Assembly: GCA_947501265.1 (NCBI GenBank)
Contig: CANMVY010000017.1
Coordinates: forward strand, 1-35,817
Reading direction: 5' to 3'
DNA: 35,817 nucleotides
From: Bacteroidota bacterium
Lineage (GTDB): Bacteria > Bacteroidota > Bacteroidia > UBA7662 > CANHCV01
The notes beneath the pieces were generated by a model. The model did not search any database. It was not told the origin of the DNA and saw only the letters and a list, made by a program, of their open reading frames with translations. Positions 2,168-35,817 of this stretch are shown here, in pieces; within the stretch, counting starts at the first letter, position 1, and each line of letters begins with the position of its first letter. Both the position numbers and the translations under genes were made by a program.

Positions 2168-2181
2168 GAAAAATCCAAAAG

Positions 2182-2212
2182 AAAAGCCCCTCCGATTTTC
2201 GGAGGGGCTTTT
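2182..2212. terminator. Bidirectional intrinsic terminator between convergent genes
   Basis: A perfect 13-bp stem (AAAAGCCCCTCCG with its complement at 2200-2212) is extended by one A-T pair around a TTT loop, with A and T runs on opposite sides. It can serve the secreted protein on the plus strand and the barrel gene (stop at 2236) on the minus strand. Confidence 0.9.
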
Positions 2213-2235
2213 CTTTATGCTGTAAGGTTAAGGAA

Positions 2236-4295: not shown

Positions 4296-4316
4296 GTTTT
4301 TTAAGTTGGTTATATC

Positions 4317-4324
4317 AAAAGTAA
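4317..4324 (-). promoter_or_regulatory. Bacteroidota-type -7 box (TACTTTTG)
   Basis: Reading the minus strand, TACTTTTG matches TAnnTTTG and lies 21 nt upstream of the ATG at 4295. No convincing TTG sits at the usual -33 spacing, so the call rests on the -7 element alone. Confidence 0.5.
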
Positions 4325-4387
4325 GAAACAGTTCGAATAAATTTGTTGCTCACCCTTCAACATTTTGACTTATAATTTTTGAATTCA

Positions 4388-4891: not shown

Positions 4892-7126
4892 TTACCAAAA
4901 ATAACGCACCTGAATTCCATAACTACGGGGCGCCGATAGATTTCCAGGAATGGGCATGAATTTCGTATTCCAAATGTTTCGAACAAATAGGCTGGTTTCC
5001 CATCCGTCGCCTTGTCCCAATCGGGTTTCCGATTTCCCGTGGTAACTCAATTGAACATCGCTCCAAAGGTTTCCCATTTTTTGTTCGGCCCTCATTTCCT
5101 TTATCCCGGGAACAAACCGTTCCAACTCTCCATCGATGTGCTGAATTTGGCTGGTATACCGGGTGCTCCAGAATAATTTCCAATGTTGACGAATTTCTGC
5201 TTGAACATTGAAATGGACCAAATGTTGAATGCGGTACTTCAGAATTCGCTGAACAGAATCGTTTAATTTGTTCAGATTGAGCGGCAAAACATACGTATAA
5301 TCGGCAAAAAACTCCAAGGAAGATTTCCCCGTTTGGAACACCCGCCAACGACCTTCCGCAAGAAGGCCGCTGATGCGGGCCGATGCGATGTTTTCGTTCC
5401 TGGCGCCCACAAAATCGGCCAAACTATAGGTTTTTGTACTATCGAAATTGGCGGGGAAAAAGATGCCGTATTGCAAATCAATCAAGTTGTTGTACGAGCA
5501 AACAAATTGAGAAATTGCGAAGTTGCCGAGGCCGGAATACGGTGATGCAATCTTCAGGTCGTACCCCGCAGCCGACTCAGGACGCAAATACGGATTGGGG
5601 AAAAGTCCGAAATTTCCTCCCACCGTGGTGATATCGGTTTCAATCAAATTCGGAGCTCTCCAACTTTGACCACCGGCCAACTGCACTTGCCATTTTTGGG
5701 GTGTTTCCCATTGGAATTTTCCACGGAAAATGGTTTTTGAAACCGGCCTCTTCCGCTGATTTTCATAATCTTCCCAACGCACCGAGGCCGAGGCCGTCCA
5801 TTTTCCCCACGGCCCTTTTCGGCTTGCGTCAACTTCTGCCCAAGCTCCTCGGGAACGACCCCAAACCGAATCTACATCGGTGAATTGTTGTAAGATTCCC
5901 GCACTCCAATCGGCCGATTTTTTATCGGATTGAAGGAGTTTGTTTTTGTAGATGAGTTCGTGGTATTTCTGCCAATTTCCCGTGTAGAAAATTCGGTTTC
6001 TCTGCCAGACTTCGTGCTTCTGGTTCGGAGAGGTCCAACGAATTTCCGGGTCGAAATAGTGGGTACGAATCACCGTAGGTTTAAACGAGGTCGGCGGAAC
6101 TTTGTAGGCCGTTGAATCGCTCTCCCAAAAGAAAAACAAGGCCGTGGAGTCACGTAATCCGAAACCACGAAGCGTAAAATCAACGGTGTGTCGATTCCAA
6201 ACCTGGTGGTAATGGGCGTTGAATCCGCCTCGAAAACGGTGACTGAACTCGCTTTCCCGGTACCCTTCGTCCCTCAAAAACTGACCGTACGTGATCAATC
6301 GAAGTCCGTTTTTATTCCAGAGCACGTTTCGAAAGTCGATGCCGGAATTCCACGGGTTTCTTCCCGGCCAAGTTCGTAGAATTCCGGGAGGCGGATTTCC
6401 ATAGATGGAATGGAAGAAACGGATGGAGTTGGATTTCCGAAAATTTTTCGAGAGATCAGAAACGGTAGAAGTGTCGGAAACCGCCGAAACAACACCGTTG
6501 ATAGAGGCAGACGGAATGAATCCTTGGGTGGGCATCCACTGGGCGCCAATGAAGAGGTTTTCGAGAGGAAGCAAATTCCATCGGATATCGCCGGAATAGG
6601 GTTGAAGAAGGGGCATTCCATCGACCAAAAGCGAGGTTCGACTGGCGGCACCCAACGAATAACCGCTTCCGCCTCGAATGCTTACTTGGCGGCCGATCAC
6701 CACCACGCCGGGGGTTCGGTTAAGTACGTCTTCGGCCGATTGGCTTCCGAAATTTTGCAATTGAAGAGGCCCCGTAGGCCATGGAGATAGTACCCGAACG
6801 GAAGACAGCGAAGCGTGAGGAAGGTAAACGGCAAATTTTTGGCTGAAAATGGTATCATTCCGAAAGAACACGCCCTCGGATTCGGCATGAAAACGAATGG
6901 TTTGTTGAATGCCTAAGAAAGAAACGCTGCATTCCGAAACCTTTTGGGGTAAGAAAAAAACACCATTGCTATCGGTAGAAATGGTTTTCCCCACATCTCC
7001 CTGAAGGTAAAAAACAGCAGCATGAGCAATGGGATTTCCCAATTCATTGGTTAGAATCCATCGTTTTTCCTGAGCCCAAAGGAAGATGGGAAAACAGAGA
7101 AGAAACCATGTAATTTTGTAGCGCAT
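4892..7126 (-). CDS. TonB-dependent outer-membrane receptor
   Basis: A 744-residue protein. Residues 1-18 are a signal peptide (MRYKITWFLLCFPIFLWA). Residues ~20-100 resemble a carboxypeptidase-regulatory-like (CarboxypepD_reg) domain (GNPIAHAAVFYLQGD, TDSNGVFFLP). Residues ~115-215 are the plug (AEDVLNRTPGVVV, VSIRGGSG, LLVDGMPLLQP). The rest is a barrel rich in aromatic strands, ending SYGIQVRYFW with a C-terminal aromatic residue. It takes up a siderophore, vitamin or other ligand using energy from a TonB complex; the substrate is not deducible. There is no SusD partner, so it is not a glycan-uptake SusCD pair. A near-match -7 box (TATCTTTA, 7142-7149 complement) may drive it. Only 22 nt separate it from the divergent GNAT gene. 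Confidence 0.9.
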   Translation of the reverse strand: MRYKITWFLLCFPIFLWAQEKRWILTNELGNPIAHAAVFYLQGDVGKTISTDSNGVFFLPQKVSECSVSFLGIQQTIRFHAESEGVFFRNDTIFSQKFAVYLPHASLSSVRVLSPWPTGPLQLQNFGSQSAEDVLNRTPGVVVIGRQVSIRGGSGYSLGAASRTSLLVDGMPLLQPYSGDIRWNLLPLENLFIGAQWMPTQGFIPSASINGVVSAVSDTSTVSDLSKNFRKSNSIRFFHSIYGNPPPGILRTWPGRNPWNSGIDFRNVLWNKNGLRLITYGQFLRDEGYRESEFSHRFRGGFNAHYHQVWNRHTVDFTLRGFGLRDSTALFFFWESDSTAYKVPPTSFKPTVIRTHYFDPEIRWTSPNQKHEVWQRNRIFYTGNWQKYHELIYKNKLLQSDKKSADWSAGILQQFTDVDSVWGRSRGAWAEVDASRKGPWGKWTASASVRWEDYENQRKRPVSKTIFRGKFQWETPQKWQVQLAGGQSWRAPNLIETDITTVGGNFGLFPNPYLRPESAAGYDLKIASPYSGLGNFAISQFVCSYNNLIDLQYGIFFPANFDSTKTYSLADFVGARNENIASARISGLLAEGRWRVFQTGKSSLEFFADYTYVLPLNLNKLNDSVQRILKYRIQHLVHFNVQAEIRQHWKLFWSTRYTSQIQHIDGELERFVPGIKEMRAEQKMGNLWSDVQLSYHGKSETRLGQGDGWETSLFVRNIWNTKFMPIPGNLSAPRSYGIQVRYFW

Positions 7127-7148
7127 CTGCCGATTAAAACTTAAAGAT

Positions 7149-7616
7149 ATGTATCGACTTCTGATGGTTGACTTTTTTCAGCCCGAAATTCCTGCTAAAA
7201 CGGTGTTGGACTCGCCCAAGGCGATGAACGATGTTTTTGAAATTCGCAGAAGAGTATTTGTGATCGAACAACAGGTTGCGGCCGAGGAAGAGTTTGAATA
7301 CGAGGAACAAAGCAACCACCTGATGGTGCACATGGGCGGACAAGGAATGGGTTGTGGACGGTGGAGGCGGACTGAAAATGGAATCAAAATCGAGCGCATG
7401 GCCGTTTTGGAAACCTATCGGGGTAAAGGCGTTGGGGCCATGGTGATGCGTGCTTTGTTGAAAGATATTCCCCATGTTCCCCATCTTCCCATCTATTTGC
7501 ATGCGCAAACCCATGCGCAATCGTTTTACGAAAAATTGGGTTTTGTAGCCGAGGGCGAGTTGTTTTACGAGTGTGAGATTCCGCACTACAAAATGGTTTT
7601 GGCCCAACGGTCGTAA
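7149..7616 (+). CDS. GNAT-family N-acetyltransferase
   Basis: A 155-residue protein of typical single-domain GNAT length. The acetyl-CoA motif A is visible as IERMAVLETYRGKGVGAMVM (R-G-K-G-V-G matching R/Q-x-x-G-x-G/A), followed by the motif B region LYLHAQTHAQSFYEKLGF. The early part FEIRRRVFVIEQQVAAEEEFE resembles the ElaA/YjcF-like subgroup. ATG 7149 is used; ATG 7164 (MVDFFQ) is a possible alternative. It stands first in a tight run with engB (11 nt gap) and the MBL hydrolase, so the three are probably co-transcribed. Acceptor substrate unknown. Confidence 0.85.
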   Translation: MYRLLMVDFFQPEIPAKTVLDSPKAMNDVFEIRRRVFVIEQQVAAEEEFEYEEQSNHLMVHMGGQGMGCGRWRRTENGIKIERMAVLETYRGKGVGAMVMRALLKDIPHVPHLPIYLHAQTHAQSFYEKLGFVAEGELFYECEIPHYKMVLAQRS

Positions 7617-7621
7617 AGGAG
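7617..7621 (+). promoter_or_regulatory. Shine-Dalgarno (AGGAG) deciding the GTG start of engB
   Basis: AGGAG begins immediately after the TAA stop of the GNAT gene and lies 6 nt before GTG 7628. Shine-Dalgarno sites are rare in this window, so this one supports the non-ATG start. Confidence 0.65.
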
Positions 7622-7627
7622 AAGAAC

Positions 7628-8230
7628 GTGGAAATTAAGAAAGCAGAGTTTTTGGTGAGTTCGCCCAATTTAGCGAAATGTCCGGTGGTCGATCGACCCG
7701 AATTTGCGTTCATTGGGCGCTCGAATGTGGGGAAATCATCCCTGATCAATTGTTTGGTGAAGCATAAAAATCTGGCTCAAACCTCGGGAAGGCCGGGGAA
7801 AACCCAGCTGATCAATCATTTCAAAGTGAATAACGATTGGTTCATGGTGGATTTACCTGGATACGGTTATGCTCGAGTGGGGAAAGAACAGCGGTTATCG
7901 TTTGTAAAAATGGTGCGCGATTATTTGGAGAAGCGGGAAAACCTCATGGTGGTTTTTCAATTGATCGATTCCCGTTTGGAACCGCAAAAGATTGATATTG
8001 AGTTTACCAACTATTTGGGTTCGAAAGGTATCCCGTGCACATTGGTCTTTACGAAAGCCGATAAACAAAGCTTGCAAAAAGGTCGAATAACCATGGATGC
8101 CTATCGGAAAGCGTTGTTGAAGACTTGGGATGAAGCGCCCGAAATGTTGCTCACTTCTGCCGAGAGCGGACACGGGCGCGAAGAATTATTGGCATATTTG
8201 GATCAGTGTTTAAAATCGGATTTGGCATGA
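7628..8230 (+). CDS. engB: Ribosome biogenesis GTPase EngB (YihA/YsxC)
   Basis: A 200-residue TRAFAC-class GTPase needed in this family for late assembly of the large ribosomal subunit. All G motifs are present: G1 GRSNVGKS (30-37), G2 around SGRPGKTQ (53-60), G3 DLPG (75-78) in the family-typical VDLPGYGYARV, G4 TKAD (142-145), G5 SAE (177-179). The length is normal for EngB. The start is GTG 7628 supported by the AGGAG upstream; no in-frame ATG gives a complete N-terminal strand. Its stop overlaps the start of the next gene (ATGA), indicating translational coupling. Confidence 0.96.
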   Translation: MEIKKAEFLVSSPNLAKCPVVDRPEFAFIGRSNVGKSSLINCLVKHKNLAQTSGRPGKTQLINHFKVNNDWFMVDLPGYGYARVGKEQRLSFVKMVRDYLEKRENLMVVFQLIDSRLEPQKIDIEFTNYLGSKGIPCTLVFTKADKQSLQKGRITMDAYRKALLKTWDEAPEMLLTSAESGHGREELLAYLDQCLKSDLA

Positions 8231-8871
8231 TCATTCAATCGTTTACCTTCAATCCGTTTCAGGAGAATACCTACGTTTTGTATGACGAAACCAAGGAGGG
8301 GATTTTGGTTGATCCAGGGTGTTATTTCCCTGAAGAAGAGGATCAATTGTTGCATTTCATTCAACAGGAAGGAATTTCCATTGTTTCCTGCGTCTTAACC
8401 CATGCTCACATCGACCATGTGATGGGATGTGCTTGGGCAAGACGGGTTTTGGAAGTAGCACCGGAGTTGCACGAGTTGGAGGTAGAGAATTTGGAGCGGG
8501 CCGCCGAGGTGGGTAAAATGTACGGGATTCCGGTAAAATCGGCTCCAGCCATTGGCAATTACCTCATTCCCGGTCAGCGGGTAGAGTTTGGAAATACCGA
8601 ATTGGAAATATTATTTACGCCGGGGCATTCGGCCGGCAGTGTTTGTTTTTACCACGAGCCCTCGTTGCGGCTGATCGGTGGCGATGTTTTGTTTTACGAC
8701 AGCATTGGCCGCACGGATTTGCCGGGAGGGAATTTCGAAACCTTGGAGAACTCCATTCTTACGCAACTGTACCGTTTGCCCGACCAGGTAGAAGTTTTTC
8801 CCGGGCATGGCCCAAGCACCACGGTAGGGAGGGAGAAGGTATCCAATCCGTTTGTTCGGTTGGGGAAATAA
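8227..8871 (+). CDS. MBL-fold metallo-hydrolase (glyoxalase II-like)
   Basis: A 214-residue metallo-beta-lactamase-fold hydrolase. The metal-binding motif THAHIDH (58-64; HxHxDH) is followed by the third His in TPGHSAGSV (H134), the bridging Asp in GGDVLFYDSIGRTD (D153) and the last His in FPGHG (H194). This set is typical of the YcbL/GloB-like small hydrolases, which may hydrolyse S-lactoylglutathione or other thioesters; the true substrate is uncertain. The ATG at 8227 overlaps the engB stop by 4 nt (ATGA). A longer frame starting at 8206 would run into engB and is not needed. Confidence 0.9.
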   Translation: MIIQSFTFNPFQENTYVLYDETKEGILVDPGCYFPEEEDQLLHFIQQEGISIVSCVLTHAHIDHVMGCAWARRVLEVAPELHELEVENLERAAEVGKMYGIPVKSAPAIGNYLIPGQRVEFGNTELEILFTPGHSAGSVCFYHEPSLRLIGGDVLFYDSIGRTDLPGGNFETLENSILTQLYRLPDQVEVFPGHGPSTTVGREKVSNPFVRLGK

Positions 8872-8883
8872 CGTCAATTGTTG

Positions 8884-8905
8884 AGGCCGACCTACGTGTC
8901 GGCCT
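8884..8905. repeat. Hairpin repeat AGGCCGAC-N6-GTCGGCCT, copy 1
   Basis: Perfect 8-bp arms around CTACGT. The identical 22-bp sequence recurs at 29407-29428, and a diverged inverted copy (20 of 22 positions) lies at 29459-29480. It sits 12 nt after the stop of the MBL gene, where it might act as a terminator-like structure for that operon, but it has no strong T run. Confidence 0.85.
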
Positions 8906-8956
8906 ATTTCTTGCGGCCTATTTCTTGCGGCCTATTCCTTGTGGCCTATTCCTTAT
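8901..8956 (+). repeat. 14-bp tandem repeat, four units
   Basis: Units at 8901-8914, 8915-8928, 8929-8942 and 8943-8956. The first two are identical (GGCCTATTTCTTGC); the third and fourth differ at one and a few positions (GGCCTATTCCTTGT, GGCCTATTCCTTAT). The array grows out of the right arm of the preceding hairpin, whose GGCCTAT forms the start of unit 1. Confidence 0.9.
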
Positions 8957-8972
8957 GTCTTTTGTTTAGGAT

Positions 8973-9096
8973 GGGTAAACTTTTTAGGGCAGGTCAAAAT
9001 GTTAACCCATATTAGGATTGAAAAATGAATGTAAATTTGTTCAAAGACAAAAACTAAAAAGAACAGAAAGAGGGTAAACTTTTTTAGGGCGGGACA
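8973..9096 (+). repeat. Short direct repeat GGGTAAAC-T(5-6)-AGGGC, possible decayed IS end
   Basis: Copies at 8973-8990 and 9072-9090 are spaced about 100 bp and followed by AGGTCAAA and GGGACACGG respectively. The form recalls the termini of an insertion sequence or a small non-autonomous element, but no transposase remains and the copies are direct, not inverted. Identity not established. Confidence 0.4.
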
Positions 9097-9140
9097 CGGT
9101 TCGTAGAATCGATTTCTTAGGGGGCCGCCACAAATTTTAT

Positions 9141-9156
9141 CCCGACAATTGTCGGG
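9141..9156. repeat. 16-bp perfect palindrome CCCGACAATTGTCGGG
   Basis: Perfectly self-complementary. Palindromes of this form are common dispersed intergenic elements in Bacteroidota genomes (general knowledge); no gene-specific role is evident. Confidence 0.6.
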
Positions 9157-9363
9157 ACATCCCCACGCACAAAGCTAAACCTTTCCAATCTCAATGTCAA
9201 TGACTTAACTGTTTATAAACGTTTACGTTACGGCTAGTCGTGAAAAATGCTGTAAATTGCTCTCGGTGGGGGAGGGGGATTTATCCCCCGTAGGACTAGT
9301 TTATTTTTTATAGATGACATTGGTTCCACATTGCGCCTTCATGGTTTTTTAAAACAGTCTGTG

Positions 9364-9430
9364 TGGTCCCTGAGCGATCCCTAAGGAATCTCGAAGGGAG
9401 AAGGGTGGTCCCTGAGTTCAAGCGAAGGGA
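9364..9430 (+). repeat. Two tandem copies of a TGGTCCCTGAG...CGAAGGGA element
   Basis: Copy 1 is 9364-9399 and copy 2 is 9406-9430. Each begins TGGTCCCTGAG and ends CGAAGGGA, with TCCCT pairing with AGGGA to form a hairpin. The internal part differs in length (copy 1 has an extra ATCCCTAAGGAAT). Elements of this shape are widespread intergenic repeats in Bacteroidota (general knowledge). Confidence 0.6.
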
Positions 9431-9453
9431 AAAACATTTAAACAACTTCTAAC

Positions 9454-9521
9454 TCCACAATTAACGTTTGGCAATGGCAAAATTGGCTATTTCAACGTTA
9501 AATTAATTTGAAATTTGTGGA
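9454..9521. repeat. Long interrupted inverted repeat upstream of the arsenic genes
   Basis: The left arm TCCACAA-TTAACGTT is continuous (9454-9468). The right arm is split: AACGTTAA (9494-9501), a 13-nt insert, then TTGTGGA (9515-9521). The central loop is 25 nt. It could be a regulatory leader structure or the trace of a recombination site. Confidence 0.5.
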
Positions 9522-9543
9522 AGTAAAGAATTCATCGTTTTTA

Positions 9544-9560
9544 TATCGTAATATTGCAAT
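9544..9560 (+). promoter_or_regulatory. Candidate ArsR-type operator (imperfect dyad around AATATT)
   Basis: ATATCGTAATATTGCAAT is an AT-rich imperfect dyad 25 nt before the first arsenic gene, with the appearance of ArsR/SmtB-type operators. No arsR gene lies in the window, so the binder would be encoded elsewhere. Based on form only. Confidence 0.35.
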
Positions 9561-9584
9561 CAAAAGTTTAAATAAAAAACAAGG

Positions 9585-10055
9585 ATGATGAAATTATCAG
9601 AATTTAAAGAACAGTTAAAATCCCTGGAAAGCATTGATTTCATACTTCCTCACGGAGATATCGTTCCGCCTCATTTTCATATTACGGAGGTAGGTAAAAT
9701 AACCAAGGAGTTTATCGATTGTGGTGGAACGATTCGAAAGGAAAACTTTGTTGGTTTTCAGCTTTGGAGTTCACACGACTTAGATCATCGGTTATCTCCG
9801 AAGAAATTAATTGAAATCATTGAAATGGCCGAAAATCAATTGACGTTGGAGGATGTTGAAATCGAAGTAGAATATCAAAATGAAACCATTGGAAAATTTG
9901 GCTTGGAATTGATGGAAGATAAATTTTTCCTAATTTCTAAACAAACAGCATGCCTTGCTCCGGATTCCTGCGGAGTTCCAATAGAAAAACCGAAAAAACA
10001 ATTGAAAGATTTAATCAATACATCAGCATGTAATCCTGGTAGTGGATGTTGCTGA
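9585..10055 (+). CDS. DUF6428 family protein (arsenic-cluster associated)
   Basis: A 156-residue soluble protein with the traits of DUF6428: an N-terminal FKEQLKSLESIDFILP segment, VPPHFHITEVGKI, FIDCGGTIRKE, FQLWSSHDLDHRLSP, a QTACLAPDSCGVP Cys-containing turn, and a Cys-rich tail ending GSGCC. The family is regularly found next to arsC and ACR3 in Bacteroidota (established association; biochemical role unknown). The Cys residues at the tail could bind arsenite or a metal (inference). The start is ATG 9585, with ATG 9588 directly behind it equally possible. It is first in an AT-rich three-gene cluster; the next gene is ~110 nt away. Confidence 0.85.
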   Translation: MMKLSEFKEQLKSLESIDFILPHGDIVPPHFHITEVGKITKEFIDCGGTIRKENFVGFQLWSSHDLDHRLSPKKLIEIIEMAENQLTLEDVEIEVEYQNETIGKFGLELMEDKFFLISKQTACLAPDSCGVPIEKPKKQLKDLINTSACNPGSGCC

Positions 10056-10165
10056 TTTTTTTCAGAATTAATGAGTGATAAAGAAGCAGGATGTACATTT
10101 AGAAAAATAAAAATCATTCTATCTTGACTGAAATGAAAGTTTTTTCCCCTTGTAAAATAACAATC

Positions 10166-10771
10166 ATGAAAACAGAGTTCAATTTAACCATTCCAAATCT
10201 CAAGGTCTCTGATTCAAGAAAAGAAATCTTACAACCATTGGTTCAATACCTTCAGGGAAAGGTAGATCGAAATGAAACCATCCGATTAAATTTCATTTGT
10301 ACCCACAATAGTAGAAGAAGTCATCTTGCTCAAATATGGGCTCAAGCGATGGCCCATCAAATTGGAATTAGGAATTTTTTTTCGTACTCAGGTGGAACAG
10401 AATCCACAGCAGTTTTTCCCGTTGTATTGGAGGTTTTAGAAAAACAGGGGTTCCAAATTCAGGCATTATCTCATTCAGAAAATCCAGTGTATTCTATAAA
10501 ATATGCATCCAATGAAATGCCATTGATTTGTTTTTCGAAGGAATACCACCATCCATTCAATCCAAAAGGTGAGTTTGCCGCTGTTTTGACTTGTGATAGT
10601 GCAGATGAAGGTTGCCCTTTGGTATTGGGAGCAGATGCTCGTTTTCCCATCAAGTATCAAGATCCAAAAATTTTTGATGGAACAGACTTGCAAAAAAGGA
10701 AATACACCGAGCGAAGTTTAGAAATTGCAAGTGAAATGTATTGGATTTTCAATTCCATTAAATTCCAATGA
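10166..10771 (+). CDS. Arsenate reductase-like low-molecular-weight phosphatase-fold protein
   Basis: A 201-residue protein with the LMW-PTP/ArsC P-loop C-x5-R: Cys45 to Arg51 in ICTHNSRRSH, followed by a C-x6-C pair (Cys143, Cys150) in LTCDSADEGC, matching the redox relay of thioredoxin-linked ArsC, and an Asp-Pro at 166-167. It would reduce arsenate to arsenite in the cytoplasm. The frame is open further up (TTG 10124, ATG 10133), but ATG 10166 (MKTEFNLTIPNL) fits better. The stop overlaps the next start (ATGA). Arsenite made here needs an exporter, and none is encoded in the cluster. Confidence 0.85.
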   Translation: MKTEFNLTIPNLKVSDSRKEILQPLVQYLQGKVDRNETIRLNFICTHNSRRSHLAQIWAQAMAHQIGIRNFFSYSGGTESTAVFPVVLEVLEKQGFQIQALSHSENPVYSIKYASNEMPLICFSKEYHHPFNPKGEFAAVLTCDSADEGCPLVLGADARFPIKYQDPKIFDGTDLQKRKYTERSLEIASEMYWIFNSIKFQ

Positions 10772-11481
10772 AAAATACAGGATATTTTTTGTTTTTTACT
10801 TTGATATTCAGTTCTTTTCAAAGTATTCATGGACAAAGCAGATCCGTTGTTGGATTATTTCCAACCCTAGATCATTCGGGACCTATTTCACCCAAGTTGG
10901 ATTATAGTTTTTATTTATTTGGGGCCCATCCACTCATGAATGTGGTTCCAAAATTTGAATGGAATAACCAAATTCTTCTGTTTTATACAGAACAGGCTAT
11001 TCATTATCATTGGACGCCCCTTATTGCTTTTTCAGGAGCGTATGTTTTTCAAAAAGAACGAATTAACCGTGAAGTGATGAGTAATGAAAATCGAATCCAC
11101 TTTCAAGCAACTGCAAAGTATCAAATGAATCGTTTTGAAATTAAAAACCGAATTCGTTGGGATCATCGTTGGATAGGTGACCCAAATAGCGATCAGATTT
11201 TTTATTCGCATCGATTTCGTTTTCTTACAGGAATAAAAAGACCTCTTAAAATTGCATCAAAAACGGGTTATTTAAGCTTTTCAGAAGAGTTTTTTTTGAA
11301 TTCATCGAAAAATTCAAGTGCCCTTTTTGGAGAGAATTGGATGAACACAGCACTTGGCATTGAAATAAATGAATTTAATAAAATTGAATCTGGGCCGCTC
11401 TACATAACTTGGAAAACAGCCGATCGTAGTTGGTTGCATCAATATTATTTTCAACTCACCTGGGTATCAAGAATAAAATAA
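10768..11481 (+). CDS. DUF2490-like outer-membrane beta-barrel protein
   Basis: A 237-residue protein with a signal peptide (MKNTGYFLFFTLIFSSFQSIHGQ) and then a strand-rich barrel (FQATAKYQMNRFEIKNRIRWDHRW, YSHRFRFLTGIKRPL, GYLSFSEEFFLN, YYFQLTWVSRI). The middle part RFEIKNRIRWDHR is typical of DUF2490 proteins. Its ATG lies within the stop of the arsenate reductase gene (ATGA), so it belongs to the same transcript. A barrel in an arsenic cluster is unusual; it could be a passenger or a porin for export or uptake (inference). The AT-rich composition matches the two genes before it. Confidence 0.7.
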   Translation: MKNTGYFLFFTLIFSSFQSIHGQSRSVVGLFPTLDHSGPISPKLDYSFYLFGAHPLMNVVPKFEWNNQILLFYTEQAIHYHWTPLIAFSGAYVFQKERINREVMSNENRIHFQATAKYQMNRFEIKNRIRWDHRWIGDPNSDQIFYSHRFRFLTGIKRPLKIASKTGYLSFSEEFFLNSSKNSSALFGENWMNTALGIEINEFNKIESGPLYITWKTADRSWLHQYYFQLTWVSRIK

Positions 11482-11567
11482 TTGACACCAGATCTCAAGG
11501 ACATTTTAGAGCGGTTACGTCGAACTTTTAATGTCGCAAACCACTTAAATTCTGGACCCTATTCAGC

Positions 11568-27746: not shown

Positions 27747-29270
27747 ATGCAAAAAGTATTGATCATCGATTCGGGTTCCCAATATACCCAGTTGATTGCC
27801 CGTCGGGTACGTGAGCAGCAAGTTTACTGCGAAATTCATCCTTTTCATACCGCCCCTGCCCCCGATGCCGATACCATTGGTGTCATTTTTTCGGGCTCTC
27901 CGGCTTCGGTTCACGATGCCAATGCTCCTCAGCTTACCGTAGATCAATATGTACACCTTCCTATTTTGGGCGTTTGTTACGGAGCCCAATATTTGGCTCA
28001 AGCCAGCGGAGGTACTGTGATCCGTTCCCAAATTCGCGAATACGGACGTGCTCATTTGAAAACGGTTGACTCGAGTTGTCCGCTTTTCAAGCATATTCCA
28101 GCGGGGAGTCAGGTTTGGATGAGCCACGGCGATACCATTGGGACGTTGCCTGCGGGAGCCAAAGTGGTAGCTTCTACCGACCATGTTGAAAATGCTGCCT
28201 ATGTTTTCGAAGGAAAACCACATTATGCCATCCAATTTCACCCTGAAGTAACGCATTCCCTCGATGGAAAGCAGTTGATCGAAAATTTCTTGGTGGAGAT
28301 TTGCGGTGCTCACCGGGATTGGACTTCCGAAAATTACATCGATGCTACCTTGCAGCAATTGAAGGATCAAGTAGGAACCGATACGGTGGTGATGGGTTTG
28401 TCGGGCGGTGTTGATTCTACCGTTGCGGCAACGTTATTGTCGAGAGCCATTGGAAAGCAATTGGTTTGCATTTTTATCGACAATGGTTTATTGAGAAAAG
28501 ACGAGTATGAGGCCGTTTTGGAAAGCTACAAGCACCAAGGTCTCAACATCATTGGAGTAGATGCCAAGCAACGTTTTTATGATGCGTTGACCGGAATTTC
28601 AGATCCAGAACAAAAGCGTAAAACCATCGGCCGCGTTTTCATTGAGGTATTCGATGAAGAAGCGAATAAAATCGATGGAGCTCGTTGGTTGGGTCAGGGA
28701 ACCATCTATCCCGATGTTATTGAATCGATGACGGTTCATGGTCCTTCGGCTACCATTAAATCGCACCACAACGTGGGCGGCCTTCCCGAGGACATGAAGC
28801 TGAAGGTGGTTGAACCGCTTCGCAGTTTATTCAAAGATGAGGTTCGTTTGGTTGGTCGTGCATTGGGTTTACCTAACACGCTTTTGGGCCGACATCCGTT
28901 TCCGGGTCCGGGATTGGCCATTCGTATTTTGGGAGATATCACGGCAGATAAAGTTCGGATTCTTCAGGAGGCCGATGCCATTTTCATTCAGAATTTGAAG
29001 GACAGCAATTGGTACGATAGGGTTTGGCAAGCAGGCGCGATTTTCCTTCCTGTTCAAAGCGTGGGAGTGATGGGCGACGAGCGTACTTACGAGCACGTGA
29101 TTTGTTTGCGAGCTGTTCAATCGGTAGACGGCATGACCGCCGATTGGAGTCATTTGCCCTATGAGCTGCTGGGTAAGATTTCGAACGAAATCATCAATCA
29201 GGTAAAAGGGATTAACCGGGTGGTGTACGATATTTCATCGAAACCGCCGGCAACGATTGAGTGGGAATAA
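27747..29270 (+). CDS. guaA: GMP synthase (glutamine-hydrolysing) GuaA
   Basis: A 507-residue enzyme making GMP from XMP, ATP and glutamine. The amidotransferase domain has Cys77 (GVCYGAQYL), His165 and Glu167 (QFHPEVTHS). The ATP-pyrophosphatase loop SGGVDST is at 219-225. The C-terminal dimerisation domain ends with the family tail [14 protein letters not shown]. The start ATG 27747 ([16 protein letters not shown]) is canonical; the in-frame TTG at 27729 only adds six residues. It is monocistronic and ended by a long hairpin. Confidence 0.97.
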
Positions 29271-29305: not shown

Positions 29306-29314
29306 GGATTTGGC

Positions 29315-29402
29315 GTTGCGGCCGACCGATCTCGACGTTGCGGCCGACCGATCTCGACGTTGAGGCCGACCGATTTCGGCGTTGAGGCCGACCGATCTCG
29401 AC
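29315..29402. repeat. 22-bp tandem repeat, four full units
   Basis: Units at 29315-29336, 29337-29358, 29359-29380 and 29381-29402. Units 1 and 2 are identical; 3 and 4 differ at a few positions (GTTGCGG versus GTTGAGG, CTCGAC versus TTCGGC). Each begins GTTG(C/A)GGCCGACCGAT. A fifth unit starts at 29403 and passes into the AGGCCGAC hairpin. There are no spacers between units, so this is not a CRISPR array. Confidence 0.9.
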
Positions 29403-29481
29403 GTTGAGGCCGACCTACGTGTCGGCCTATTTTTTTGGATTTCGGCATTTATTTTTTTCGGCCGACACTTAGGTCGGCCTC
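29403..29481. repeat. Pair of inverted hairpin repeats (copies 2 and 3)
   Basis: Copy 2 at 29407-29428 (AGGCCGAC/GTCGGCCT around CTACGT) is identical to copy 1 at 8884-8905. Copy 3 at 29459-29480 is its inverted complement with two changes. They flank a ~30-bp T-rich segment. Copy 3 forms the last coding codons and the stop of the XRE gene. The region looks like a small palindromic element or two insertions facing each other. Confidence 0.8.
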
Positions 29482-29828
29482 TTCAACAACGCTTTGAGTC
29501 GCGCATTTTCTTCTTCCAACATGGCGATGTATTTTTCGGTATGGGTCAAAACCTGGTTGTGGAAATGGGGTTCATCGGCACCGTCGCCTTGCACCAGGTT
29601 ATTGTTCGAAATATTGAAAACCTTTGATACGTCAAAATTGAGGATTTTAGGCACTTCCACCTCTAAAATTTCGGAAATCTTGAACAGCTTAGAAATGGAA
29701 ATTTCCGATTCTCCCCGCTCGATTTTCGAATAGCCCGATAAGCTCAAGTCCAATTCAGCGGCCATGGATTCCCGGGTAATCCCTTTCAATTCCCTCAAAC
29801 GTTTGATGTTGGCAGCTACTTTTTTCAT
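29469..29828 (-). CDS. XRE-family helix-turn-helix regulator
   Basis: A 119-residue DNA-binding protein. Residues ~5-60 are a HTH_3/XRE domain (IKRLRELKGITRESMAAELDLSLSGYSKIERGESEISISKLFKISEIL). A middle segment with FNISNNNLVQGDG follows, and a C-terminal coiled coil (EKYIAMLEEENARLKALL) probably serves dimerisation. The last residues RPT and the stop are encoded by the hairpin repeat, so the original C-terminus may have been a few residues different. It is divergent from the 816-aa gene across a 101-bp spacer holding an operator-like dyad, so it probably regulates itself and that gene. Confidence 0.9.
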   Translation of the reverse strand: MKKVAANIKRLRELKGITRESMAAELDLSLSGYSKIERGESEISISKLFKISEILEVEVPKILNFDVSKVFNISNNNLVQGDGADEPHFHNQVLTHTEKYIAMLEEENARLKALLKRPT

Positions 29829-29862
29829 ACCGCTAAAGTAGTAATAAAGTTGGATTAGTGGT
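29829..29862. promoter_or_regulatory. Operator-like inverted repeat in the XRE/816-aa divergent region
   Basis: ACCGCTAA (29829-29836) and TTAGTGGT (29855-29862) are inverted with 7 of 8 matches and 18 nt between. It sits directly before the regulator's ATG (29828), where bound regulator would block its own promoter. The rest of the spacer to 29929 is AT-rich with no clear TAnnTTTG box. Confidence 0.45.
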
Positions 29863-29929
29863 ATATTGAATTTTTGCGTTGTAGTGTATGAATTGTAGAT
29901 GATTTATTTTAGCAAAAATTATTTTTATT

Positions 29930-32380
29930 ATGGGCAAATCAAAAAAATCAACTTTTTTGGACTATTCTTTAGAAGATTTATGTTCGAAAGCTACAGAAAA
30001 TGGCATTGTTGAAAAAATAACGAATACTATTCAAATAAATCCAGAAGAAAATCCAGAAGAACTACTTGATTTTTTAGATTTTCAAGAAGAAGAACTCGAG
30101 AAAAGAGCAAAGGGAAAGAAAAAAGACCCTGCATTTAAAATGATTAAACTCTCAAAAAATTCGAAAATATCAACTAAAAATTTTCAGTGGTTAAGGGGCG
30201 ATTTTGTATTAAATTCTGAAGAGTTAATTGGCAAGCCTGTTTTAGACCGGAATGGAAAGTGTAATTCTATCTCCGAAGAATATACGACAGGCCTTATTGA
30301 AGTACCTGAGATTCCAATTTCCGATGTCAATGAAGCCGTTCATCAAAATAACTTTAAAGAAATGGAAACGCTTCGAGCACAAATTCCATTACTTGATTTG
30401 CTGATGAATCTCAATATGGAATACATTACGGGCAAAAAGAATGCTCCAATTGAGAATGCTGATGATTTGAAATGTTACAGAGATTTCATTAATATTTATT
30501 TGACATTACCCAATATTTCGCCTGAATTTGAAGACTATCAAAAACTTAAAAATCAAGAATTATCCCCTCTGCCTTCTTGTTCTATTCCAATACCATCAAA
30601 CGCCAATAACCGACAAGAATTAATACGTTTTCTACTTCAAACCTTTAATCAGCGATATTACCGTTTTATTTCCAATGAAACCTTTCTAAACGAAGAATTA
30701 AACAACCTTTTTTACGGATTTAACTTCCTTTTAATTTCTTATGAATACCACGACATTAATGAAGAACAGCTTAAAGAATTAGGCTCTAAAGTTCAAAATA
30801 TTTTTCCCAAATGGACTGTTAAAGGTGCGTACTCTTTTTCAAAAGCTGTGATTTCAACTTCTCATTTTATCGTCAGATTTTATCGATTTTATGAATTCCT
30901 TTCTTTGAATCAAGAACAACAATTTGAAAAAGTATTTGAGAAGTACGAAGCATATCAATTTTCACCTGAAAAAGACTTTTATATTGATAACAAATTCACT
31001 CCTGAAGCAGCTCTAAATCTGGTAAAATCATTTACGAATCGCTTTCATTCACATGTTAAATTTCAAAATGTGTTTATTGATGATAAAACCAGTTTAGATT
31101 GGTCAATGCAACATCATGCAGATGGGATGGAACTTTTACCTGCATTATCAAAGGAAGAAAAAGCTCATCTTATTTCAAACTATACCTTGGATAATTTCGA
31201 TGAAGACCCTTTTCAAAAAATTAAAATGTTAGGACAATTTTTCGAATTTGGAGATTCAACCGGTGATATTAGAAGGAATATTCAGTTGAATTGCGACTTT
31301 ATCCATAAATATAATATCAAAGAAAAAACATCAGCAAATGTAGATAGAGCGTTCCCTTTCCTTCCCTATTCAATGGAAACACTTATTTACGTATGTTTTG
31401 AGTCATTTTTTAGATATATCAGGTTTTCATCCGAATCACTAATTGTTTATGAGGATGGAACAATTCAGAATGAAAAAGCAGAAGAGAATTTCGATGTTTT
31501 TAATATTCCAGAAATATTAACAACCAGCACAAAGTATGGAGATAATGGCGCAAATGACAAACCATTCCTTATGGGTAAACAAATGTGGCGTAATCTAATG
31601 AAAGAGGAATTCAATTTTCCAACTATCAAATTTGATCTCCACATTAAAAACTTTTTCCAAAAAATAGGTCTTGATATTTATAAAGAGCAAGCACTTTTGC
31701 AAGAATTTCAAACAAATTTTTCCTTATTTGAATTATTCTTTGGCAATAATTTAAGTCGCATTCTTCCAATAATCAATGAACGGGATCGAAATAATAGTGA
31801 ATATTATCCTTTGAATGACGCTACCCTTACACTGAAAGTAAAAGATTTCACCAAATATTTGAAGAAAAATTACAAAACACGATTTCAGAAAAAAGGTTAT
31901 ATTTTTGGAATGGTCAACCTTTTTGGAAATTTCCAAACAGGCCATTCAAAACTGAACGATGAATCAATTTCACTTTTGAATTCATTTAACATGCTAAAAA
32001 ATAAAAATGGAGATTTGTATTTTGAGAGGCGCTTCCATTCTGATTTTAATTCGGCATTGAACCGGAAAAAAATCCAAATAAAAGGGACAAAGTTGTTAAA
32101 TAATCCTGAAGAAGCCGTTTTTTACGAAGATTACTATTTCCCTTCTGAACCATCCGATTTTTCAGTCAATAAAAAAGGGAAAATTCGCGAAAAAAGATCT
32201 CTTTTATCTGTTTTAGATCGTTTAATATGGCTTATTTATAGTCGCAATTTATACGACCAAAGTCCCGAAGGACTTGTACTGAGAGAAAGAGAGAAAAAAA
32301 GTAAACAAGATGGTTTTGATAAAGAATATTCCCTAAAAAGAATCGAAAATGAAGCCTTGGCTACATTGGGAATAAAATAA
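29930..32380 (+). CDS. Unrecognised 816-aa protein in an AT-rich accessory module
   Basis: A large protein I cannot assign to a family. It has no signal peptide and no TM helix, so it is probably cytoplasmic. The N-terminus is basic then acidic (MGKSKKSTF; NPEENPEELLDFLDFQEEELEKRAKGKKK). The body is rich in aromatic and charged residues, with helical stretches (RQELIRFLLQTFNQRYYRFI; FIVRFYRFYEFLSLNQEQQFE). A short R-F-H-S motif occurs twice (371-374 and 701-704). The C-terminus is strongly charged (LVLREREKKSKQDGFDKEYSL). No Walker, nuclease, or HEPN motif could be assured. Base composition is visibly poorer in G+C than guaA and nuoF on either side, a sign of acquisition. Divergent from an XRE regulator. 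A defence or mobile-element role is only an inference from context. Confidence 0.8.
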   Translation: MGKSKKSTFLDYSLEDLCSKATENGIVEKITNTIQINPEENPEELLDFLDFQEEELEKRAKGKKKDPAFKMIKLSKNSKISTKNFQWLRGDFVLNSEELIGKPVLDRNGKCNSISEEYTTGLIEVPEIPISDVNEAVHQNNFKEMETLRAQIPLLDLLMNLNMEYITGKKNAPIENADDLKCYRDFINIYLTLPNISPEFEDYQKLKNQELSPLPSCSIPIPSNANNRQELIRFLLQTFNQRYYRFISNETFLNEELNNLFYGFNFLLISYEYHDINEEQLKELGSKVQNIFPKWTVKGAYSFSKAVISTSHFIVRFYRFYEFLSLNQEQQFEKVFEKYEAYQFSPEKDFYIDNKFTPEAALNLVKSFTNRFHSHVKFQNVFIDDKTSLDWSMQHHADGMELLPALSKEEKAHLISNYTLDNFDEDPFQKIKMLGQFFEFGDSTGDIRRNIQLNCDFIHKYNIKEKTSANVDRAFPFLPYSMETLIYVCFESFFRYIRFSSESLIVYEDGTIQNEKAEENFDVFNIPEILTTSTKYGDNGANDKPFLMGKQMWRNLMKEEFNFPTIKFDLHIKNFFQKIGLDIYKEQALLQEFQTNFSLFELFFGNNLSRILPIINERDRNNSEYYPLNDATLTLKVKDFTKYLKKNYKTRFQKKGYIFGMVNLFGNFQTGHSKLNDESISLLNSFNMLKNKNGDLYFERRFHSDFNSALNRKKIQIKGTKLLNNPEEAVFYEDYYFPSEPSDFSVNKKGKIREKRSLLSVLDRLIWLIYSRNLYDQSPEGLVLREREKKSKQDGFDKEYSLKRIENEALATLGIK

Positions 32381-32390
32381 CCCCCCACCA

Positions 32391-32429
32391 AAAAAAATAC
32401 CCTCCGATTTCTCGGAGGGTATTTTTTTT
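32391..32429. terminator. Strong bidirectional terminator between the 816-aa gene and nuoF
   Basis: The stem AATACCCTCCGA pairs with TCGGAGGGTATT around TTTC, with A and T runs of seven or eight on the outer sides. The T run overlaps the nuoF stop on the other strand. It ends both the 816-aa transcript and the nuo transcript. Confidence 0.93.
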
Positions 32430-33774
32430 ATGCTACCACCTCAGGTCGGTTCTCCCAGTGGGGGTAATTCCCGCGCTGGGCCGCCTCCGGCTCCTGAATA
32501 TGCCATTCAAACTCGTCGCGGAAATGACGAATCGCCGCCGCAACCGGCCAAGCCGCCGCATCGCCCAACGGACAAATCGTATTGCCTTCGATTTTCTTCG
32601 CAACGTCCACTAACAAATCAATGTCGCTCATCTTGCCGTGACCGTTTTCAATGCGGTGCAACACCTTCTCCATCCATCCCGTTCCTTCGCGACACGGACT
32701 GCACTGTCCGCAGCTTTCGTGGTGGTAGAAACGCGCCAACGTATAGGTATTGTGCACAATGCACTGGTCTTCGTCGTAAATGATGAACCCGCCCGAACCC
32801 AACATGGTGCCGGAAATAAATCCGCCGTCGGCCAACGATTCATAGGTCATCAAACGTGGCTCGCCGGCCGCCGTTTTCGTAATCAAATTGTGCGGTAAAA
32901 TGGGTACCGATGAACCGCCGGCAATCATCGCCTTTAGTTTTTTGCCATCGGCAATGCCGCCGCAGTACTCGTCGGAATAAATGAATTCCTCAACGGAAAT
33001 GCCCATTTCAATTTCATAAACACCGGGTTTACGAATATTTCCGCAAGCCGAAATCAACTTGGTACCGGTAGAACGACCCACGCCAATGCCGGCGTACGCA
33101 TCTCCACCCATGTTGATGATGTGCGGAACCGTAGCAATGGTTTCTACGTTGTTCACCACGGTCGGACATCCCCACAATCCTTTGATCGCTGGGAACGGTG
33201 GTTTCATGCGCGGATTTCCACGTTTTCCTTCCAACGATTCGATCAAAGCGGTTTCTTCTCCGCAGATGTACGCTCCGGCTCCCGGAGTCACGTACAAGTC
33301 CAAATCGTAGCCGGAGCCTTGGATGTTTTTACCCAACCAACCGTTTTTGTACGCTTCGGCAATCGCTTCTTCCAAAATGGAAACGATCCACATGTATTCT
33401 CCACGGATGTAGATGTAACTGGTGTTGGCGCCCAAGGCAAAAGACGAAACGATCATGCCTTCCACCAACGAGTGTGGCATGTACTCCATCAAATACCGGT
33501 CTTTAAAGGTTCCGGGCTCCGATTCGTCGGCATTGCACAACAAATAACGGGGCACACCTTCGGGCTTCGCCAAAAAGCTCCATTTCATTCCGGTTGGGAA
33601 ACCGGCACCGCCTCGTCCTCTCAGACCTGATTTTTTCACTTCCTCAACGATATCGTCGGAAGTCATTTTCAAGGCTTTTTCTACCGAGGTGTATCCACCA
33701 TGCTTGCGGTAAGCATCGTAATAACGAATTCCTTCTACGTGGTCATTCGCCAATAAAATCTTTTTTCCGGCCAT
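32428..33774 (-). CDS. nuoF: NADH-quinone oxidoreductase subunit F (NuoF)
   Basis: A 448-residue subunit of the complex I NADH-dehydrogenase module. FMN/NADH glycine-rich segments are [11 protein letters not shown] (52-62) and [22 protein letters not shown]. The N3 [4Fe-4S] ligands are in [15 protein letters not shown] and [10 protein letters not shown]. Start ATG 33774 ([12 protein letters not shown]), 3 nt after nuoE. It is the last nuo gene before a strong terminator; nuoG does not follow. Confidence 0.97.
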
Positions 33775-33777
33775 GGC

Positions 33778-34311
33778 TTAATTTTTTGAAGCGGCTTCTT
33801 TGCGCCAATTTTCAATCAACGTATCAATTTTCTCTTCGTTCAAATGCTCGAAGAAAACATCGCCCACCTGCATCATCGGAGCGTACCCGCATGCGCCGAG
33901 GCACTCTACGGTTTTCAAGGTGAACAATCCGTCGGCGCTGGTGCCTCCCACTTCAATGTTCAACTTATTCTTGATGTAGTCAATGGTTTTTTCTGCTCCA
34001 CGGGTGCAACAAGGCCCCGTTTGGCAAAATTCAAACACGTATTTTCCAACGGGTTTCAAGTGGTACATGGAGTAAAACGTGGCCACTTCGTACACCTCAA
34101 TGGGCTGGATGTTCAACAAAGAAGCGACGTAATCCATCACTTCTACGCTCAACCAACCGAAGTCTTTTTGACCCATGTGCAAAATGCGCAAAATTGCACT
34201 TTTGTGTTTTCCTTCAGGATATTGTTTCATCAAGCGATCTACTTCGGTGAGTCGATCTGCGCTGAAGGTGCAGCCTACGTGGGCTGGGTTATTTTTGATG
34301 CTGGATTCCAT
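33778..34311 (-). CDS. nuoE: NADH-quinone oxidoreductase subunit E (NuoE)
   Basis: A 177-residue thioredoxin-like [2Fe-2S] subunit. The cluster ligands are visible: Cys96 and Cys101 (CQTGPC) and Cys137 and Cys141 (CLGAC). EVYEVATFYSMYH is the family signature. The start ATG 34311 shares one base with the nuoD stop (TAATG), indicating coupling. Confidence 0.96.
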   Translation of the reverse strand: MESSIKNNPAHVGCTFSADRLTEVDRLMKQYPEGKHKSAILRILHMGQKDFGWLSVEVMDYVASLLNIQPIEVYEVATFYSMYHLKPVGKYVFEFCQTGPCCTRGAEKTIDYIKNKLNIEVGGTSADGLFTLKTVECLGACGYAPMMQVGDVFFEHLNEEKIDTLIENWRKEAASKN

Positions 34312-35528
34312 TATGCGTCTAATTCTCCGGCGATTACATTCATTGAACTCATGGTTAAGATAGCGTCGGAAATCAACGCTCCTTTGGCCATTTCAGGATA
34401 GGCTTGGTAATAGATGAAGCAGGGGCGACGGAAGTGCAAACGGTAAGGAGTGCGTCCGCCATCGCTCACGAGGTAAAAGCCCAATTCCCCGTTTCCGCCT
34501 TCCACGCTGTGGTAAACTTCTCCCGCTGGAATGGGAGTTTCGCCCATCACAATTTTGAAGTGGTAGATGAGCGCTTCCATCGAACGGTACACTTCCTCTT
34601 TTTGGGGAAGGTAAAATCCGGGAACATCTACGTAGTGATTTCCTTCGGGCATTCCATCCAGCGCTTGCTGAATGATGCGCAACGATTGACGAATTTCTTC
34701 TTGGCGAACCAAGAAGCGATCGTACGTATCTCCATCTTTTCCGATGGGTACATCGAATTGAAAATCTTGGTAAGAGGAATAAGGATTCATCACGCGAACG
34801 TCGTAATCAACGCCGGCCGCGCGCAAGTTGGGTCCCGAAAATCCGTAAGAGAGAGCGCGGTCTGGAGCAATAGGTCCAGCGCCGATTACGCGATCCATGA
34901 AAATTCTATTGCGTTCCAACAAGCTGTTGAACTCTTCGAAACGAGCGGGGAAACCCTTTAGGAAGGCCTTCAGTTTCGAGTAAAAAATGGAATTGAAATC
35001 GCGCTCGAAACCGCCAACACGACCAATGTTCGTGGTGAGTCGAGCGCCGCAAACTTCTTCAAAAAGCTCATAAATGTACTCTCGCTCCTGGAACATGTAG
35101 GTAAAGCCAGTTAGTGCACCGGTATCTACCCCAATCACCGCGTTGCACACCAAGTGATCGGCAATGCGCGCCAACTCCATGATGATCACACGCATGTAAT
35201 CGATCTTTTTGTTGGTGGTGATTCCGGCCAATTTTTCTACGGTCATTTCCCAACCCATGTTGTTGATGGGGGAAGAACAGTAGTTCAATCGGTCGGTAAT
35301 GGTGGTGATTTGGTTATAATTGCGGCGTTCGGCCAATTTTTCAAAAGCGCGGTGGATGTATCCCACCGTGGGTTCGGCGCTCAAAATGCGCTCCCCATCT
35401 ACTTTCAAGATGTTTTGAAAGATGCCGTGGGTGGCGGGGTGAGTGGGCCCAAGGTTAAGGGTTGCGATCTCCCCGTCGATGGTCTCCAAACTCATGTGGT
35501 TTGGATTGTAGGCTTGTAAATTGCTCAT
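34311..35528 (-). CDS. nuoD: NADH-quinone oxidoreductase subunit D (NuoD)
   Basis: A 405-residue 49-kDa subunit that lines the quinone site. Motifs LNLGPTHPATHGIFQNIL (near 26-43), GYIHRAFEKLAERRNYNQI, ITDRLNYCSSPINNMGWE and the C-terminal ISDAILTMSSMNVIAGELDA (usually ending D-R; here ELDA) are clear. It follows nuoC by 12 nt. The last residues differ slightly from the usual VMGEVDR end, which is common in Bacteroidota. Confidence 0.96.
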   Translation of the reverse strand: MSNLQAYNPNHMSLETIDGEIATLNLGPTHPATHGIFQNILKVDGERILSAEPTVGYIHRAFEKLAERRNYNQITTITDRLNYCSSPINNMGWEMTVEKLAGITTNKKIDYMRVIIMELARIADHLVCNAVIGVDTGALTGFTYMFQEREYIYELFEEVCGARLTTNIGRVGGFERDFNSIFYSKLKAFLKGFPARFEEFNSLLERNRIFMDRVIGAGPIAPDRALSYGFSGPNLRAAGVDYDVRVMNPYSSYQDFQFDVPIGKDGDTYDRFLVRQEEIRQSLRIIQQALDGMPEGNHYVDVPGFYLPQKEEVYRSMEALIYHFKIVMGETPIPAGEVYHSVEGGNGELGFYLVSDGGRTPYRLHFRRPCFIYYQAYPEMAKGALISDAILTMSSMNVIAGELDA

Positions 35529-35540
35529 GGGTTCTGGGGA

Positions 35541-35817
35541 TTAACGGCCAAAGAAACGATCGGCTTTGTCTTCGCGGGTAGAATCCTCTAAAGGATACTC
35601 TTTGCGAAGCGGGTGATACGTCATTTCATCCATGTTGAGAATTCTTCGCAAATCGGGGTGACCATCGAATAGAATTCCGTAAAAATCAAACGTTTCCCTT
35701 TCTTGCCAATTCGCGGAAGCGAATAGGCCCGTGAGGGTAGGAACGTGGGGTTTTTCAATGGGAACGAAAACTTTGATGCGAATGCGGTAGTTGTTTTCCA
35801 ACGAGTGGATGTGGTAA
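35541..35817 (-). CDS. nuoC: NADH-quinone oxidoreductase subunit C (NuoC), 5' part beyond the window
   Basis: The frame is open to the window edge; about 91 C-terminal residues are seen. YHIHSLENNYRIRIKVFVP and WQERETFDFYGILFDGHPDLRRIL are the core of the 30-kDa subunit, and LRKEYPLEDSTREDKADRFFGR is its tail. A TTG at 35801 is an internal Leu codon, not a start. First visible gene of the nuoCDEF run. Confidence 0.94.
   Translation of the reverse strand, partial: YHIHSLENNYRIRIKVFVPIEKPHVPTLTGLFASANWQERETFDFYGILFDGHPDLRRILNMDEMTYHPLRKEYPLEDSTREDKADRFFGR

What the first reader, a model, noticed from the sequence alone, without database searches (positions are those of the whole stretch)
29469..32390. 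XRE regulator divergent from an unrecognised 816-aa protein: candidate undescribed module
Seen: an AT-rich two-gene block between guaA and the nuo genes, bounded by hairpin repeats on one side and a strong bidirectional terminator on the other. The regulator and the large gene are divergent across 101 bp with an operator-like dyad. The large protein has no signal, no TM and no motif I can name. Known: regulator-plus-large-cytoplasmic-protein pairs occur among phage defence and toxin systems. Inference: a single-effector defence or stress module under repression by the XRE protein.
Basis: partly seen in the sequence, partly recalled or inferred. Interest (0 to 1): 0.72.

Follow-up and report, generated by a model that had tools for sequence, protein, structure and literature searches.

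The report
Orphan gene inserted beside resident regulator
A large protein gene with no detectable relatives has been inserted from foreign DNA between two old housekeeping loci of a small Bacteroidota bacterium; a sister genome carries a phage-defence-type gene in the same interval, so it may be a defence gene, but the neighbouring regulator is an older resident and probably not its partner.

Summary
The layout described is real: an XRE gene (29469-29828, -) and an intact 816-aa ORF (29930-32380, +), 101 bp apart, between guaA and nuoF, with hairpins on one side and a strong bidirectional terminator on the other. The "AT-rich two-gene module" reading fails. The XRE gene has native composition (44% GC, GC3 57%). 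Its ortholog (82% aa identity) sits at the same place in a same-genus genome (G396), where the 816-aa gene is absent. DNA homology with G396 stops at 29883 and resumes at 32391, so the foreign segment is the 816-aa gene alone (31% GC, GC3 25%). In G396 the same interval holds a LamG/Fib_succ_major gene and an AT-rich Abi_2/AbiD-like gene flanked by a 300-nt direct repeat of the nuoF 3' end. The 816-aa protein matched nothing in Pfam, NCBIfam, PADLOC, PHROGs, PDB sequences, phages, plasmids or about 1,990 Bacteroidota genomes; single-sequence AlphaFold was uninformative. Best reading: a horizontally acquired orphan in a variable interval that also takes defence cargo, most likely a single-protein defence or conflict effector. 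The insertion is well supported; the function is a guess from location. First-reader interpretation is only partly supported.

The parts
29930..32380 (+). 816-aa orphan protein gene (31% GC), foreign insert cargo
   Evidence: Intact ORF; longer than any open frame in 1,000 Markov-1 sequences; no relative in any search
29884..32390 (.). Segment without counterpart in sister genome G396 (insert or replacement)
   Evidence: blastn of the window against L009: homology ends at 29883 (80% identity) and resumes at 32391 (90% identity)
29469..29828 (-). Resident XRE (HTH_3) regulator, native composition, orthologous next to guaA in G396
   Evidence: HTH_3 E=1.9e-14; 82% identical ortholog at G396:C16:29936-30283; GC 43.9%, GC3 0.567
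29828..29863 (.). Candidate XRE operator dyad TACCGCTAA-N18-TTAGTGGTA, probably autoregulatory
   Evidence: lies inside the DNA shared with G396 and overlaps the start region of the XRE gene; imperfectly kept in G396 by eye (TACCGCTAA / TTAGGTGGTA)
32390..32429 (.). Bidirectional intrinsic terminator shared by nuoF and the 816-aa gene; right edge of the insert
   Evidence: 18/18 complementary arms; -25.1 kcal/mol, z -8.5; homologous terminator in G396
29314..29481 (.). 22-nt tandem array and hairpin between guaA and the XRE gene
   Evidence: same 20-mer hairpin also at 8885-8904
27747..29270 (+). guaA (flank), syntenic in G396
32428..33774 (-). nuoF (flank), last gene of a nuo operon broken after nuoF in this genus
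   Evidence: 98% identical in G396; contiguous nuo operon with nuoG following nuoF in G397; nuoG on other contigs in the genus

Best explanation
The 816-aa gene is a single-gene, horizontally acquired accessory gene. It was inserted, or swapped in, between the promoter of a resident XRE regulator gene and the terminator of nuoF, at a place where this genus has already broken its nuo operon and where DNA is exchanged. SHOWN: the exact edges against a sister genome, the foreign composition, the intact ORF, the absence of detectable relatives, and a different AT-rich insert (Abi_2/AbiD-like) in the same interval in the sister. INFERRED: it encodes a soluble, mainly helical single-protein effector of the phage-defence or genetic-conflict kind, normally silent or low and active on its own when triggered; its transcript ends at the nuoF terminator. 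INFERRED: the XRE protein regulates its own gene through the dyad and affects the orphan at most incidentally, because the orphan happens to start 67 bp beyond the dyad. The catalytic mechanism cannot be read from the sequence.
For: Edges 29884 and 32390 against G396. GC 31% / GC3 0.25 versus 0.44-0.51 / 0.48-0.59 for XRE, guaA and nuo genes. XRE ortholog at the same site without the orphan. The sister interval holds an Abi_2 gene (Pfam E=5e-9; PADLOC PD-T4-5 1.3e-11 and AbiD 1.2e-10) at 35% GC, flanked by a 300-nt, 97% identical direct repeat of the nuoF end. PD-T4-5 is a tested single-gene defence system related to AbiF/D, and hotspots of defence genes also hold many uncharacterised ones (PMC9519451). 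AbiD/AbiF carry predicted HEPN RNase domains (PMC3710099). No TM and no mobile-element motif found in the orphan.
Against: No PADLOC match for the orphan. The defence reading rests on one neighbouring insert in one sister genome. The other gene at that place in G396 (LamG/Fib_succ_major) is not a defence gene. No HEPN R-x4-H, P-loop or PD-(D/E)xK pattern. No integrase or other defence gene nearby in the window. The helical content comes only from a very low-confidence model. Only one informative sister genome, since the other (G395) is broken in guaA; the insertion is therefore polarised by composition, not by phylogeny.
Confidence: 0.45

Rival explanations
1. One reading: XRE and the 816-aa protein form a dedicated regulator-effector (toxin or defence) module in which XRE represses the effector until a trigger relieves it.
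For: Divergent arrangement with 101 bp between the genes; a dyad next to the XRE start.
Against: The XRE gene and its dyad region occur at the same place in G396 without the effector; compositions differ sharply; the closest further XRE homologue in the order (G397, 54%) stands divergent from a TonB-dependent receptor; PADLOC hits of this XRE (control protein, capH, PDC-M69A) are also given by unrelated XRE paralogs and are not diagnostic.
Confidence: 0.12
2. The 816-aa gene is stray cargo of a phage, satellite or other mobile element (for example a phage-encoded protein of unknown role) with no defence function, left behind in the interval.
For: Foreign composition; absence from nearly 2,000 related genomes, as typical for mobile or viral orphans; sister interval shows recent insertion with a flanking direct repeat.
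Against: No PHROG family above chance, no tblastn match in 50,697 phage records even at E=10, none in viral contigs with the patterns used; no integrase, att repeat or structural gene beside it; ORF is intact, which suggests selection or recency.
Confidence: 0.28
3. The gene has another accessory role (for example nucleic-acid metabolism, nutrient use or stress tolerance) unrelated to conflict.
For: Nothing in the sequence excludes it; the G396 gene next to XRE is a surface LamG/Fib_succ_major protein.
Confidence: 0.12
4. Assembly or binning artefact: the AT-rich segment was joined by mistake from another genome.
For: The genome is a 26-contig assembly and the segment differs in composition; reads cannot be inspected.
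Against: Both flanks are in the same contig and syntenic with G396, and each insert edge falls at a biologically sensible place (end of the XRE promoter region, start of the nuoF terminator); the ORF is complete and ends 10 bp before the shared terminator.
Confidence: 0.03

Closest known systems
Abi_2 / AbiD / PD-T4-5 single-gene abortive-infection proteins
   Same: Occupies the same guaA-XRE-nuoF interval in the sister genome as an AT-rich single-gene insert.
   Different: No sequence similarity reported, no R-x4-H motif, two to three times longer.
Genomic defence hotspots (e.g. P2/P4 hotspots and E. coli integration spots; PMC9519451, PMC9122126)
   Same: Conserved flanks with exchangeable foreign genes, some of them known defence genes.
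   Different: Only two informative genomes; no integrase seen; the exchange mechanism is not a demonstrated site-specific integration.
guaA 3'-end integration hotspot of genomic islands (recalled from general knowledge; e.g. a search hit on ICERspD18B, PMC7775301, paper not read)
   Same: Variable DNA lies downstream of guaA.
   Different: No second copy of the guaA 3' end in the window; the insert lies beyond a resident XRE gene, against nuoF.
Class 2 type VI effectors (Cas13-like, roughly 775-1,300 aa HEPN RNases; sizes from general knowledge)
   Same: Large single cytoplasmic protein in Bacteroidota, AT-rich.
   Different: No R-x4-H motif at all, no family match; the 22-nt array beside guaA is a spacerless tandem repeat.

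Membership tests
XRE / HTH_3 regulator (P0002) | HTH_3 domain above the Pfam cut-off | tested here: met
   53.9 bits vs cut-off 23
Regulator-effector two-gene module | Regulator and effector are inherited together | tested here: not met
   XRE ortholog in G396 at the same site without the 816-aa gene; only one informative sister genome
Known anti-phage system (PADLOC 2.0.0) | 816-aa protein matches a model | tested here: not met
   0 families at E<=10
HEPN RNase effector (Abi_2, Cas13 and relatives) | R-x4-H (or R-x4-6-H) catalytic motif | tested here: not met
   no match of R.{4,6}H in the protein
HEPN RNase effector (Abi_2, Cas13 and relatives) | HEPN fold | tested here: inconclusive
   single-sequence AlphaFold2 mean pLDDT 34.5 and 35.5, not interpretable
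P-loop NTPase effectors | Walker A motif | tested here: not met
   no GxxxxGK[ST]; no Pfam hit
Defence hotspot cargo | Conserved flanks with different foreign genes, some known defence genes, in related genomes | tested here: met
   G000 orphan vs G396 Abi_2/AbiD-like in the same interval; n = 2 genomes only
Defence hotspot cargo | Protects against phage | not testable with these tools
   needs a plaquing assay
guaA 3'-end genomic island | Duplicated guaA 3' end and an integrase | tested here: not met
   no second guaA end in the window; no integrase among the ORFs read between guaA and nuoF

The most novel reading that the evidence does not exclude
The 816-aa protein is the first member of an undescribed single-protein anti-phage (or other genetic-conflict) effector family with a fold or mechanism not yet catalogued, carried by a small integrase-less cassette that is exchanged with Abi-type genes beside nuoF.
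Probability: 0.25. Interest if true: 0.6.

Novelty: new member of a known kind. Interest (0 to 1): 0.3.

Why it matters
Orphan genes in defence hotspots are where new immune effectors are being found, so a complete 816-aa gene without detectable relatives at an interval that in a sister genome holds an Abi gene is a reasonable single candidate for cloning. It does not by itself settle any open question. The comparison shows that gene adjacency (XRE plus large gene) can mislead when one of the pair is an old resident.

Tried and rejected
Homologue hunts for the 816-aa protein that found nothing: Pfam, PADLOC, NCBIfam, PHROGs and PDB sequences; tblastn on phages and plasmids at E 0.1 and 10; the own genome and about 1,990 Bacteroidota genomes; genome contigs and viral contigs with exact peptide patterns, and with patterns loosened through mock alignments A1/A2 made of recoded window sequence (these rows are artificial and were used only to loosen patterns). 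Weak hits looked at and rejected as chance: G859 (E 0.004, overlaps an unrelated 545-aa secreted protein), own contig C5/C19, Paraburkholderia plasmid (E 6, an AraC-type regulator), phrog_32376 (E 0.22). Single-sequence AlphaFold of the whole protein and of residues 541-816: pLDDT about 35, so no fold search was run. PDC-M69A/capH matches of the XRE: generic, since XRE paralogs give them too. guaA-island idea: no guaA-end repeat. Cas13-like idea: no R-x4-H.

Full report
WHAT IS THERE. The window is the whole of contig C17 of a 2.33-Mb, 26-contig, 99.99% complete Bacteroidota genome (the phylum is my inference from gene content and the reach of the phylum search). Between guaA and nuoF lie a 119-aa XRE gene (29469-29828, -) and an 816-aa ORF (29930-32380, +), divergent across 101 bp. 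On the guaA side there are a guaA terminator hairpin, a 22-nt tandem array (29314-29423) and a 22-nt inverted repeat (29406-29427/29460-29481). On the nuoF side there is a perfect 18-bp bidirectional terminator at 32390-32429. The large ORF is not a chance frame: in 1,000 Markov-1 sequences of the same segment the longest open frame was 178 codons.

THE TWO GENES HAVE DIFFERENT HISTORIES. The order holds 21 genomes, and two other genomes belong to the genus. In one of them, G396, guaA and nuoF face each other in the same way. BLASTN of the two intervals gives homology for guaA, then 29484-29883 (the XRE gene plus 55 bp upstream, 80% identity), then nothing until 32391, from where nuoF onward is 90% identical. 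The XRE ortholog in G396 is 82% identical. The segment 29884-32390, which is the 816-aa gene with 46 bp of leader and 10 bp of trailer, has no counterpart. Composition agrees: XRE 43.9% GC (GC3 0.567), guaA 48% (0.484), nuoD/E/F 46-51% (0.57-0.59), 816-aa gene 31.0% (GC3 0.252). So the XRE gene is resident and the 816-aa gene is foreign. The block is not one AT-rich module.

THE DYAD. TACCGCTAA-N18-TTAGTGGTA at 29828-29863 (the pattern was written after seeing the sequence, so its chance figure is optimistic) lies in the DNA shared with G396 and is imperfectly kept there by eye. It is most simply the XRE gene's own operator. In G397 (another family) the best XRE homologue (54%) is divergent from a TonB-dependent receptor.

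THE INTERVAL IS VARIABLE. In G396 the interval holds a 715-aa LamG/Ig/Fib_succ_major protein of native composition (48% GC). It also holds an Abi_2 gene (Pfam E=5e-9; PADLOC PD-T4-5 and AbiD) at 35% GC, flanked by two 300-nt copies, 97% identical, of the nuoF 3' end plus terminator and repeat. A single-crossover (Campbell-type) integration of a circular DNA carrying the nuoF end and the Abi_2 gene would leave exactly this; that mechanism is inferred. The 816-aa insert has no such repeat. In G397 the nuo operon is contiguous with nuoG after nuoF. In the genus, nuoG-N lie elsewhere, so nuoF's 3' side is an old rearrangement point.

THE PROTEIN. It has no match in Pfam, PADLOC, NCBIfam, PHROGs or PDB sequences, phages or plasmids, or about 1,990 Bacteroidota genomes (the draws overlap slightly). 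Scans of 85,000 species genomes and of IMG/VR also found none, but they need short near-exact peptides and would miss most relatives below about 50% identity. Weak hits were inspected and are chance. No R-x4-H, Walker A, PD-(D/E)xK or CxxC pattern and no TM segment were found. AlphaFold without relatives gave pLDDT about 35 for the whole protein and for its C-terminal third; no fold claim is made.

INTERPRETATION. Shown: a foreign, intact, single-gene segment of unknown family next to a resident regulator, at an interval where a sister genome has taken up an Abi gene. Inferred, with modest confidence: a single-protein defence or conflict effector. AbiD/AbiF proteins are predicted HEPN RNases (PMC3710099), PD-T4-5 is an experimentally found plasmid-borne single gene related to AbiF/D, and defence hotspots hold many uncharacterised defence candidates (PMC9519451). 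The XRE protein is probably autoregulatory and only an accidental neighbour. Stray mobile-element cargo is the main rival.

LIMITS. One informative sister genome; no homologues; no reads to check the joins; direction of change (insertion rather than loss) rests on composition.

Noticed in passing
L009 (G396:C16:22000-38000) 4128-5676: Abi_2/AbiD-like gene flanked by two 300-nt, 97% identical copies of the nuoF 3' end with its terminator, as a single-crossover integration would leave; no integrase beside it.
   Followed up: partly
window 32428-35801; L032, L033, L034; L026: The nuo operon is split after nuoF in this genus (nuoG-N on another contig in all three genomes), while G397 of the same order has it contiguous.
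   Followed up: partly
L009 4323-4551, 5572-5800, 8339-8567: A 229-nt dispersed intergenic repeat present three times around the G396 interval, absent from the corresponding G000 interval, which has a 22-nt array instead.
   Followed up: no
window 8885-8904, 29408-29427 and 29460-29479: The palindromic hairpin GGCCGACCTACGTGTCGGCC recurs in the window as an intergenic terminator-like element.
   Followed up: partly
window 2175-2221: A 48-nt stretch 85% identical to the nuoF terminator region lies downstream of an unrelated gene; a dispersed terminator-like repeat.
   Followed up: no
window 9500-11500: Second AT-rich stretch (33-38% GC) with DUF6428, an ORF without a Pfam hit that looks like a low-molecular-weight phosphatase/arsenate-reductase type protein, and DUF2490; possibly also acquired.
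   Followed up: partly
L018 (G397:C1) 5289-9568: Three consecutive AAA/DUF4143-type ATPases matching PADLOC candidate PDC-S01, just downstream of the G397 XRE homologue.
   Followed up: partly
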